DNA of 49,643 nucleotides from an uncultured Myxococcales bacterium (GTDB lineage Bacteria; Myxococcota; Myxococcia; Myxococcales; Myxococcaceae), in assembly GCA_903911905.1 (NCBI GenBank), contig CAIWFK010000340.1, positions 1-49,643 of the forward strand, in the 5' to 3' direction. Positions 20,259 to 23,208 of the stretch are shown here, in pieces. Both the position numbers and the translations under genes were made by a program. The notes beneath the pieces are model-generated. The model had not been told where the DNA came from, did not search any database, and saw nothing but the letters and a program-made list of their open reading frames with translations. Each line of letters begins with the position of its first letter. The stretch's first letter is position 1.

Positions 20259-20948
20259 CTACTTCCGCTCGCGCATCGGCCGAACCAGGCCGGCCAGTGG
20301 TCGAGTCACGACCGACTCCACGGCGTCGACGAACGCCGCCGCCGCGGCCTCGACGTCGGCGAGCGCGCCGCTCAGGTACCCACCGGCGAAGTTGGTCTCG
20401 GTCGGCGGCCCGAAGAACTTCACCAGCGTCACCGGAGCCGCCTTGAGCGCCGCGTCGAGCCCCACCAACGCCTCGTTGGGCGTGGCGATGAGGTAGGCCA
20501 GTGGAGACCCCACGGGCACTCCGGCCAGGGGCGCCAGGTAGCGCCCGGTCTCGGCAATCACGTGGGGAAAGAACGCCGGGCCGGTCAGGCCTTCGAAGGT
20601 GAAGAACGAGATGCGGCTGGTCAGCGCTTCCCTCAAGGCCCACAGGCCCTCGGCGACGTCGTCGGGGTTGCTGCCGGCGAGCACGCCGAGAATCTCACCG
20701 CTGGTCGGGCCCGACGCATGACCCGAGCCGGCGTAGAAGCTCTTCGCGTACACCACGTCGACCTCGGCGAATTTGGTGGCGTGGTCGAGCGCCGCGTAGA
20801 GCGAATCGTCCTGGTCACAGGTGACCAGCCCCGCCGACACGTGCCGGGCCGGGTCGAGCCCGAGCGCACGAGCGAGCTGCGGTTCGACTCGTTCCAACTG
20901 TCGAACCGAGAGCAACCGGGGCCTGACGGGAACCAGCGCGCGCGCCAT
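20259..20948 (-). CDS. eutL: EutL, ethanolamine microcompartment shell protein
   Basis: A 229-residue tandem BMC-domain protein that in enteric bacteria forms pseudohexameric trimers with a gated central pore in the ethanolamine microcompartment shell. Diagnostic EutL phrases are LGLDPARHVSAGLVTCDQDD, VVYAKSFYAGSGHASGPTSGE, ILGVLAGSNPDDVAEGL, PLAYLIATPNEALVGLDAAL and VTLVKFFGPPTETNFAGGYL. The length is close to E. coli EutL (219). The start overlaps the eutC stop (TGATG), so translation is coupled. No other shell gene (EutM, EutK, EutS, EutN type) lies in the window, which makes the lone shell protein notable. Confidence 0.95.
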   Translation of the reverse strand: MARALVPVRPRLLSVRQLERVEPQLARALGLDPARHVSAGLVTCDQDDSLYAALDHATKFAEVDVVYAKSFYAGSGHASGPTSGEILGVLAGSNPDDVAEGLWALREALTSRISFFTFEGLTGPAFFPHVIAETGRYLAPLAGVPVGSPLAYLIATPNEALVGLDAALKAAPVTLVKFFGPPTETNFAGGYLSGALADVEAAAAAFVDAVESVVTRPLAGLVRPMRERK

Positions 20949-21835
20949 CAGTGATTGACCACGTGCGGCCGGAACGCCGCGTCACCGCCGGTGAGCTTCA
21001 CCCCGCCGCCACCCGCCGCGAAGCAGCGCTTCATCAACTCGGCGGCCCGCTTCGCCGCGCGCGCGGGCACGAAGCCCAGGCTGCGTACGTTGGAAATGCA
21101 GTCCTTCTCGGCGTTGTCCTGCGCCAGCTTCGGCCCATACGCGGTGTAGATGGACAGCGAATCGCCGGTGCCCAGGCCCGGCCGCTCTCCGACCACGATG
21201 AGCGTGGCCTTCGCGCGGGTGAGCACGCCAATCTCGTCCTGCACGCCGATGCGCGCGTACTTCACGAACAGCGGCTGCCCCACGGTGAAGCCCTGCCCCT
21301 TCAGCTCGGTCGTCAACGCGGCGATGAGCGCCGGCCCGTTGGTGAGCAGCGCGTGCGCCGACAGCCCGTCACCGGCGATGAGCTGCAGGTCGGCGCGCTG
21401 GTCGACCTTCTCGACCACCGCCCGGGAAGCGTCGTCGAGCGCGCGGCCGTGGTCGGGGTGCAGGAAGAAGTCGGTGTGGTCCACCGCGCGGGTCTTCAGC
21501 GGCACCCACCCCTGCTGCGCAGCCCAACCGTCGGGCACTTCACTTTCCACCGCGTCGAGCGCGATGGCGTGGTCGGCCCGCAGGCCCAGGTACGAGCTGG
21601 TGAGGTAGCGCGTACCGGTGCGCCCGGTCACGATGCGCGAAGGCGTGGCGGCGACCAGCGCGTCGAGCGCAGACGCGTTGCGTGGAGGCGGCAGCGGTCG
21701 GTGGCGGGGTCCACGACTCCACACGGGCCGCGCTTCCTGGTCGGCAGGCGCAGGGGCGACCTTCGGCTGCTCGGCCTCGGCGACCACCTGCTTGACGACT
21801 TCGCGCACCAGCGCGGCGAGCTCGGCCTCGGTCAC
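20948..21835 (-). CDS. eutC: EutC, ethanolamine ammonia-lyase small subunit
   Basis: The 295-residue light chain of the adenosylcobalamin-dependent enzyme that splits ethanolamine into acetaldehyde and ammonia. Family phrases include RIVTGRTGTRYLTSSYLGLR, RAVDHTDFFLHPDHGR, LQLIAGDGLSAHALLTNGP, VGERPGLGTGDSLSIYTAYG and NAEKDCISNVRSLGF. The GTG 21835 start overlaps the eutB stop by four bases (GTGA). The first ~22 residues (TEAELAALVREVVKQVVAEAE) form an amphipathic helix followed by a Pro/Ala linker, the layout of the encapsulation peptide that targets EutC to microcompartments. Confidence 0.97.
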   Translation of the reverse strand: MTEAELAALVREVVKQVVAEAEQPKVAPAPADQEARPVWSRGPRHRPLPPPRNASALDALVAATPSRIVTGRTGTRYLTSSYLGLRADHAIALDAVESEVPDGWAAQQGWVPLKTRAVDHTDFFLHPDHGRALDDASRAVVEKVDQRADLQLIAGDGLSAHALLTNGPALIAALTTELKGQGFTVGQPLFVKYARIGVQDEIGVLTRAKATLIVVGERPGLGTGDSLSIYTAYGPKLAQDNAEKDCISNVRSLGFVPARAAKRAAELMKRCFAAGGGGVKLTGGDAAFRPHVVNH

Positions 21836-23208
21836 GGGCGGAAGGCCTCGTCGAAGACCGACGCGTCACCCGCACGGTCGGTCAGTCGCCCATTTCGCCA
21901 CAACCCCATGCGCTCGAGCCAGGCCTCGAACTCGGGCGCCGGCTTGAGCCCGAAGATTTCGCGCAGCGACGCGTTGTTGTGGAACGAGGTGGTCATGTAG
22001 TTGAGCATCACGTCGTCGCCCATGGGAATGCCCATGAGGTAATTGACGCCTGCGGTGGCGAGCAACATCTCGAGGTTTTCCTGGTCGTTCTGATCAGCGA
22101 TGGCGTGGTTGGTGTAGCACGCGTCACACCCCATCGAGATGCCGGTCAGCTTGCCCATGAAGTGGTCTTCGAGGCCGGCGCGGGTGATTTGCTTGGCGTC
22201 GCGCAGGTACTCGGGCCCGATGAACCCCACCACCGAATTGACCAGGAACGGCTGGTACCGACGTGCCAGCCCGTAGGCCCGCGCTTCCATGGTGACCTGG
22301 TCGGTGCCGTGGTGCGCGTTCGCCGACAGCGCGGTGCCCTGCCCGGTCTCGAAGTACATGACGTTGGGTCCCTGCGCGGTGCCTTCGCGCAGCGCCAGGT
22401 CGTACGCCTCGTCGAGCACCTGCACCGTCACGCCGAAGTTCTGGTTCGCGCCCTGGCTGCCCGCGATGGACTGGAACATGAGGTCCAACGGCGCGCCCTG
22501 CCGCACCGCCGCCATCTGAATGGTGATGTGCGAGAGCACGCAGTTCTGGGTGGGCACCCGGTACTGGCGCATCAGGTCCTTCACCGCGCGCAGAATGTCG
22601 ATGGTGCCCTGAAGGTCTCCGGTCGACGGGTTGACGCCGATGACCGCGTCACCGTTACCGAAGCTCAGCCCGTCCTTCACCGCGGCGAGCACGCCCTCGA
22701 CCTCGTCGGTGGGGTGGTTGGGCTGCAGGCGGCTGGCGATGCGGCCCTTGAGCCCCAGGGTGTTGTTGCAGCGCACGACCACCCGCATCTTCCGGCCCGC
22801 CACCACCAGGTCCATGTTCGACATCAGCTTGGCGACGGCGGCGATCATCTCGGCGGTCAGCCCCGGCCCCACCGCGGCGATGTCTTCCGAGGTGGTGCGG
22901 TCGTCGAGCAGCCACTCGCGCAGCCGAGACACCGTCCACCCCTTCACCTTCGCGTACGCGTGCTGGTCGAGCCCGTCGACGATGACCCGCGTCACCTCGT
23001 CGGCCTCGTAGGGCACCGAGGGCGCGTTGAACAGTTGCTCCATGGTCACGTCGGCCAGCACCTGCTTGGCGGCGGCCAGCTCGCGCATCGAGCGGGCGGC
23101 GAGCCCGGCCTGTTGGTCTCCCGAGCGCACCTCGTTCGCGCGCGCGAGCACCTCCTTGAGCGAGGAGAAGCTGAACGACTCACCATGCACGCGCGCCGTG
23201 AGGGCCAT
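21832..23208 (-). CDS. eutB: EutB, ethanolamine ammonia-lyase large subunit
   Basis: The 458-residue catalytic heavy chain, near the family norm of ~453. The start at ATG 23208 gives MALTARVHGESFSFSSLKEV. Conserved regions are VIVDGLDQHAYAKVKGWTVS, RCNNTLGLKGRIASRLQPNH, GLSFGNGDAVIGVNPSTGD, YFETGQGTALSANAHHGTDQ, GCDACYTNHAIADQNDQENL and YMTTSFHNNASLREIFGL. First gene of the eutB-eutC-eutL operon; both following junctions overlap. No reactivase (eutA), aldehyde dehydrogenase (eutE), phosphotransacetylase (eutD), regulator or permease gene adjoins it, so acetaldehyde use must rely on genes elsewhere. It is divergent from a PilZ gene across 102 bases, in which I see no cobalamin riboswitch. Confidence 0.97.
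   Translation of the reverse strand: MALTARVHGESFSFSSLKEVLARANEVRSGDQQAGLAARSMRELAAAKQVLADVTMEQLFNAPSVPYEADEVTRVIVDGLDQHAYAKVKGWTVSRLREWLLDDRTTSEDIAAVGPGLTAEMIAAVAKLMSNMDLVVAGRKMRVVVRCNNTLGLKGRIASRLQPNHPTDEVEGVLAAVKDGLSFGNGDAVIGVNPSTGDLQGTIDILRAVKDLMRQYRVPTQNCVLSHITIQMAAVRQGAPLDLMFQSIAGSQGANQNFGVTVQVLDEAYDLALREGTAQGPNVMYFETGQGTALSANAHHGTDQVTMEARAYGLARRYQPFLVNSVVGFIGPEYLRDAKQITRAGLEDHFMGKLTGISMGCDACYTNHAIADQNDQENLEMLLATAGVNYLMGIPMGDDVMLNYMTTSFHNNASLREIFGLKPAPEFEAWLERMGLWRNGRLTDRAGDASVFDEAFRP

What the first reader, a model, noticed from the sequence alone, without database searches (positions are those of the whole stretch)
20259..23208. Minimal ethanolamine operon: eutB-eutC with a single shell protein, EutL
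eutB, eutC and eutL are contiguous with both junctions overlapping, so EutL is made in step with the lyase. Canonical eut loci encode several shell proteins plus EutA, EutD, EutE and EutG; here EutL is the only one and the flanking genes are unrelated. A trimeric EutL alone is not expected to close a polyhedral shell. It might act as an ethanolamine- or cobalamin-binding accessory, assemble with shell proteins encoded elsewhere, or form an open coat around the lyase.
Basis: partly seen in the sequence, partly recalled or inferred. Interest (0 to 1): 0.72.

Follow-up and report, generated by a model that had tools for sequence, protein, structure and literature searches.

The report
Ethanolamine satellite of a split microcompartment
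The three ethanolamine genes are real, but they are not a stand-alone minimal operon: the rest of the protein shell and the next enzyme of the pathway are encoded elsewhere in the same genome, an arrangement already noticed in 2021 for this group of bacteria.

Summary
The same draft genome carries a complete Haliangium ochraceum (HO) type shell in two other places: contig C123 (BMC-Tdp, BMC-H, BMC-P, EutE-subfamily aldehyde dehydrogenase, BMC-Tsp) and contig C694 (two BMC-P, class II aldolase). Sutter et al. 2021 already described EutA/B/C-EutL "EUT modules" as satellites of HO microcompartments. Over 195 Myxococcota genomes, 33 of 34 with EutL also have BMC-P (73 of 195 have BMC-P). EutC next to EutL carries an N-terminal amphipathic helix plus linker resembling the targeting peptide of the HO aldehyde dehydrogenase; four EutC of shell-less genomes lack it. 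Additions not in the text of that paper that I read: only weak EutA-family matches in the 195 genomes, the window genome's being FtsA; a lone eutQ gene on a fourth contig, found almost only in EutL genomes; and this EutQ lacks the segment that binds targeting peptides in Salmonella. Best reading: the lyase is loaded into the HO shell, EutL is an extra tile, and acetaldehyde passes to the encapsulated dehydrogenase. A member of a known but untested kind.

The parts
21832..23208 (-). eutB, ethanolamine ammonia-lyase large subunit, 458 aa
   Evidence: PF06751 E 2e-207; best PDB match 2qez, E 2e-178; checked positions conserved with E. coli EutB
20948..21835 (-). eutC, small subunit, 295 aa, with an N-terminal extension of about 63 residues before the core
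   Evidence: PF05985 E 6e-62, match begins at residue 56; start GTG overlaps the eutB stop
21773..21829 (-). EutC residues 3-21: predicted amphipathic encapsulation helix (TEAELAALVREVVKQVVAEA region), followed by a low-confidence linker
   Evidence: AlphaFold2 helix 3-21, pLDDT about 85; residues 26-44 below 50; similar to the N-terminus of the HO aldehyde dehydrogenase
20259..20948 (-). eutL, trimeric BMC-T (Tsp) shell protein, 229 aa, two BMC domains
   Evidence: NF011934 242 bits, cut-off 198; PDB EutL 4edi E 1e-57

Best explanation
The three genes are an unlinked ethanolamine module of a Haliangium ochraceum (HO) type metabolosome. EutBC is made with EutL; the N-terminal helix of EutC takes the lyase into the HO shell built from BMC-H, BMC-Tdp, BMC-Tsp and three BMC-P encoded on contigs C123 and C694; EutL joins the facets as an extra trimer, probably an entry pore for ethanolamine. 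Inside, ethanolamine becomes acetaldehyde and ammonia, and the encapsulated EutE-subfamily aldehyde dehydrogenase turns acetaldehyde into acetyl-CoA. Shown by sequence: the genes, the shell set in the same genome, the co-occurrence, the helix. Inferred: mixed assembly, targeting, pore function and the flux.
For: Own genome has the HO shell, closest in PDB to HO-5816, HO-5815 and the family of 5dih, plus an aldehyde dehydrogenase of subfamily NF011927 (641 bits, cut-off 403). Those contigs match the window in GC and tetranucleotides (r 0.969-0.989; pieces of the window itself from 0.975). EutL with BMC-P in 33 of 34 EutL genomes against 40 of the other 161 (Fisher 7e-16; by genus 6e-5). EutC beside EutL has 56-91 residues before the core and a helix; four EutC from genomes without shell have 14-22 and no helix. 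EutC helix resembles the HO dehydrogenase helix at shuffle p at most 0.03 in 15 of 18 genomes, no control below 0.48. EutC 1-19 is a targeting peptide in Salmonella (PMC3299773; PMC12487888). EutB/C/L distances follow AldDH/BMC-H/Tdp distances (r 0.71-0.83). Sutter 2021 proposed the same (PMC8217296).
Against: No experiment shows EutL in an HO shell or EutBC in one. 40 of 73 shell genomes lack EutL, so the shell has another main cargo. G011 has eutBCL but no BMC-P, no BMC-H and no such dehydrogenase; it is 92% complete. In G026, G027 and G018 the two helices are not alike beyond chance. No true reactivase EutA was found. The distance correlations are what plain vertical descent would also give.
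Confidence: 0.8

Rival explanations
1. EutBC works free in the cytoplasm as an ordinary ammonia-lyase and EutL is a passenger or a soluble accessory (ligand binding, lyase tether), with no part in the HO shell.
For: Genes unlinked from the shell; myxobacteria do have EutC without shells (G105, G040, G048, G033, and about 56 genomes with a second, lower-scoring EutC form). G011 keeps eutBCL without shell genes found.
Against: Shell-less EutC forms lack both EutL and the N-terminal helix; EutL is nearly confined to shell genomes.
Confidence: 0.1
2. EutL alone forms an open coat or sheet around the lyase.
For: Translational overlap of eutC and eutL; G011 as a possible case without other shell genes.
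Against: A full shell set is in this genome and in 33 of 34 EutL genomes. In Salmonella EutL is dispersed in the cytoplasm when EutM is absent (PMC12487888).
Confidence: 0.03
3. The shell contigs are contamination of the draft genome (907 contigs, 4.5% contamination) and this organism has only eutBCL.
For: Draft assembly; the loci are on short contigs (7.6 and 14.6 kb).
Against: Composition matches the window and related genomes of the same family have the same combination, with the closest dehydrogenase relatives there.
Confidence: 0.04

Closest known systems
EUT-module satellite loci of HO, SPU3 and SPU6 microcompartments (Sutter et al. 2021, PMC8217296)
   Same: EutB, EutC and a EutL-type BMC-Tsp away from an HO main locus; type I HO satellite with two BMC-P and an aldolase also present here
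   Different: The paper lists EutA/B/C; here the only EutA-family match in the genome is FtsA. A lone eutQ gene is added.
HO microcompartment of Haliangium ochraceum
   Same: One BMC-H, BMC-Tdp like HO-5816, BMC-Tsp, BMC-P triplet, aldehyde dehydrogenase, satellite BMC-P pair with aldolase
   Different: H. ochraceum's published set of seven shell proteins is one BMC-H, three BMC-T and three BMC-P (PMC4207490); I did not test whether its third BMC-T is EutL-like
EUT1 operon of E. coli and Salmonella
   Same: EutB, EutC with N-terminal targeting helix, EutL; order eutB-eutC-eutL; EutE-subfamily dehydrogenase; EutQ
   Different: E. coli has all genes in one locus with EutS, EutM, EutN, EutK, EutA, EutD, EutG, EutH, EutT, EutR; here dispersed, without EutA and PduL, no PTA_PTB match above cut-off

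Membership tests
EUT-module satellite of an HO microcompartment | EutB, EutC and EutL-type BMC-T contiguous | tested here: met
EUT-module satellite of an HO microcompartment | No BMC-H or BMC-P at the satellite, a main locus with both elsewhere | tested here: met
EUT-module satellite of an HO microcompartment | EutA in the module | tested here: not met
   All EutA-family matches in 195 genomes are at most 37.6 bits; the own-genome match is FtsA by its sequence. The paper says modules consist of EutA/B/C plus EutL for HO, SPU3 and SPU6 together; whether each has EutA is not stated in the text read.
HO microcompartment | BMC-P triplet, BMC-Tdp and aldehyde dehydrogenase | tested here: met
Canonical EUT operon | Several shell genes plus EutA, EutE, EutD, EutG at one locus | tested here: not met
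Functional ethanolamine metabolosome | Lyase encapsulated with the dehydrogenase in a closed shell | not testable with these tools
   needs purification or imaging

The most novel reading that the evidence does not exclude
In close to half of the Myxococcota with an HO shell (33 of 73 here) the enigmatic HO microcompartment is also an ethanolamine organelle, with its parts spread over up to four unlinked places (main shell, BMC-P/aldolase satellite, eutBCL, eutQ), running without the reactivase EutA and with a EutQ that has lost the peptide-binding segment, so that cargo must be held in another way.
Probability: 0.5. Interest if true: 0.5.

Novelty: new member of a known kind. Interest (0 to 1): 0.3.

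Why it matters
The HO shell is the main structural model of microcompartments, yet its native function is unknown. A co-inherited ethanolamine module with its own targeting helix gives a substrate to test, a naturally swappable cargo-plus-tile cassette for shell engineering, and two open questions: how the lyase is reactivated without EutA, and how cargo is tethered when EutQ lacks its peptide-binding part.

Tried and rejected
EutA: 182 genomes matched PF06277 but weakly (best 37.6 bits, over a short stretch of the profile); the own-genome protein is FtsA, so these were rejected as EutA; the other 181 proteins were not read one by one. PduL (PF06130): none in the own genome; hits in some relatives mostly lie in open frames of 580-1363 aa that I did not follow up. 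Pta (PF01515): own match below cut-off. Riboswitches: no Rfam family on the window or the three other contigs. Conserved neighbours of eutBCL: only shadow frames opposite the eut genes. Automatic start choice for EutC failed or picked a wrong start in several genomes (G067, G143, G147; no core pattern found in G157, G013, G189, G156, G108); for G157, G013, G189, G156 and G143 an N-terminal helix-like stretch is visible. Literature search for Myxococcota ethanolamine microcompartments found nothing beyond Sutter 2021.

Full report
Observation. The three genes are present at the stated place on the minus strand: eutB 21832-23208, eutC 20948-21835, eutL 20259-20948, with family matches far beyond chance. 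The junctions overlap by 4 bases (GTGA) and 1 base (TGATG). Neighbours are a response-regulator/kinase hybrid (23633-24724), a PHB-esterase-like protein (17938-19962) and a ThiD-like kinase (25737-26546).

The window is contig C340 of a draft genome of 907 contigs, 92% complete. PF00936 finds, besides EutL, four BMC domains on contig C123; PF03319 finds one BMC-P on C123 and two on C694. Read out, C123 (L010) holds BMC-Tdp (about 3403-4041; start codon uncertain), BMC-H 4102-4410, BMC-P 4426-4713, aldehyde dehydrogenase 4925-6349 and BMC-Tsp 6355-6918; C694 (L011) holds a class II aldolase (1175-1834, minus) and two BMC-P (1843-2115 and 2112-2375, minus). The best PDB relatives of the Tdp and H proteins are the H. 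ochraceum shell proteins HO-5816 and HO-5815; the Tsp matches 3pac and then 5dih, which also occurs in the HO shell entry 6n0f. The dehydrogenase is in the subfamily NF011927 (PRK15398), 641 bits, cut-off 403, matched from residue 1. Contamination is unlikely: the contigs match the window in composition and family members share the arrangement.

Already known. Sutter et al. 2021 (PMC8217296) describe type I HO microcompartments with a satellite of two BMC-P and an aldolase, and 'EUT modules' of EutA/B/C plus a EutL-type shell protein as satellites of HO, SPU3 and SPU6 microcompartments, and propose that they extend the organelle to ethanolamine. This window is such a module.

Survey. Of 195 Myxococcota genomes, 34 have EutL (20 genera), 73 have BMC-P (51 genera), 94 have a EutC match. 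EutL and BMC-P: 33 together, 1 EutL alone (G011), 40 BMC-P alone, 121 neither; Fisher p 7e-16 counting genomes, 6e-5 counting genera. Genomes are related, so the genus count is the fairer one. Stand-alone EutC (high score, 38 genomes) coincides with EutL in 33; the exceptions are G105, G040, G048, G033 (no shell) and G108, whose EutB scores nearer to the shell-less type. In G184 and G185 EutBC and EutL are on different contigs. The gene order is otherwise the same, and no other neighbour is conserved. In G056 and G183 the module and the main locus are on one contig, roughly 165 and 60 kb apart.

Targeting helix. EutC proteins beside EutL carry 56-91 residues before the core, starting with a helix of the kind TEAELRALVREVVKEVV; the four from shell-less genomes start 14-22 residues before the core and show no such stretch. 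AlphaFold2 on 25 aligned EutC gives a helix at residues 3-21 (pLDDT about 85) and a linker of low confidence before the core. The helix resembles that of the HO dehydrogenase of the same genome at shuffle p at most 0.03 in 15 of 18 genomes, none of the four controls does, and E. coli EutC against EutE gives p 0.002 as a positive control. The sequences are related, so these 15 are not independent. In Salmonella the first 19 residues of EutC are sufficient for targeting (PMC3299773), and removing residues 2-19 leaves EutB in the cytosol (PMC12487888).

EutQ and EutA. A EutQ gene lies alone on contig C604 (L132 9567-10136, minus), 116 bits in PF06249 and like PDB 2pyt. Strong EutQ (above 110 bits) occurs in 14 of 195 genomes, 13 of them with EutL; within shell genomes 13 of 33 with EutL against 1 of 40 without (Fisher 6e-5). 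The exception, G107, is 78% complete. This EutQ keeps the N-terminal part and the cupin but lacks, in all nine myxobacterial sequences aligned or nearly so, about E. coli residues 63-110; in Salmonella region 63-99 binds the EutC peptide (PMC12487888). EutA was not found: the PF06277 matches are weak and the own one is FtsA. PduL is absent and Pta is below cut-off in this genome, so how CoA is recycled is open.

Mechanism. Most likely EutBC is loaded into the HO shell by the EutC helix, EutL enters the facets as an extra trimer, and acetaldehyde is handed to the encapsulated dehydrogenase. Genes, co-occurrence and helix are shown; mixed assembly, pore role and flux are inferred. Distances of EutB, EutC and EutL follow those of AldDH, BMC-H and Tdp (r 0.71-0.83), as expected of co-inheritance, though plain vertical descent of each gene gives the same.

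Verdict. A real and correctly read locus whose surprise comes from the limits of the window; a new member of a known, experimentally untested kind, with three modest additions (EutA missing, EutQ dispersed and trimmed, helix present only with EutL).

Noticed in passing
L132 (G000:C604) 9567-10136, minus: Lone eutQ gene between unrelated genes; strong EutQ is found in 13 EutL genomes and one other out of 195, and the myxobacterial form lacks the peptide-binding segment of Salmonella EutQ.
   Followed up: partly
G011:C127 (locus L073): A genome of another family with eutB-eutC-eutL, helix on EutC included, but no BMC-P, no other BMC domain and no HO dehydrogenase found; a gap or a true shell-less eutBCL.
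   Followed up: partly
G061 to G140 and others: About 56 Myxococcota genomes carry a second, low-scoring EutC form in open frames mostly of 750-1000 aa, perhaps EutB-EutC fusions, never together with EutL.
   Followed up: no
L071 and L108 (G056:C92); G183:C7: Module and HO main locus on the same contig but roughly 165 and 60 kb apart.
   Followed up: no
window 19221-19709 and nearby: Simple GGGTATGGG-type repeat coding for long (GGGTAT) Gly-Thr-Ala runs in the esterase-like protein; similar runs on contig C694.
   Followed up: no
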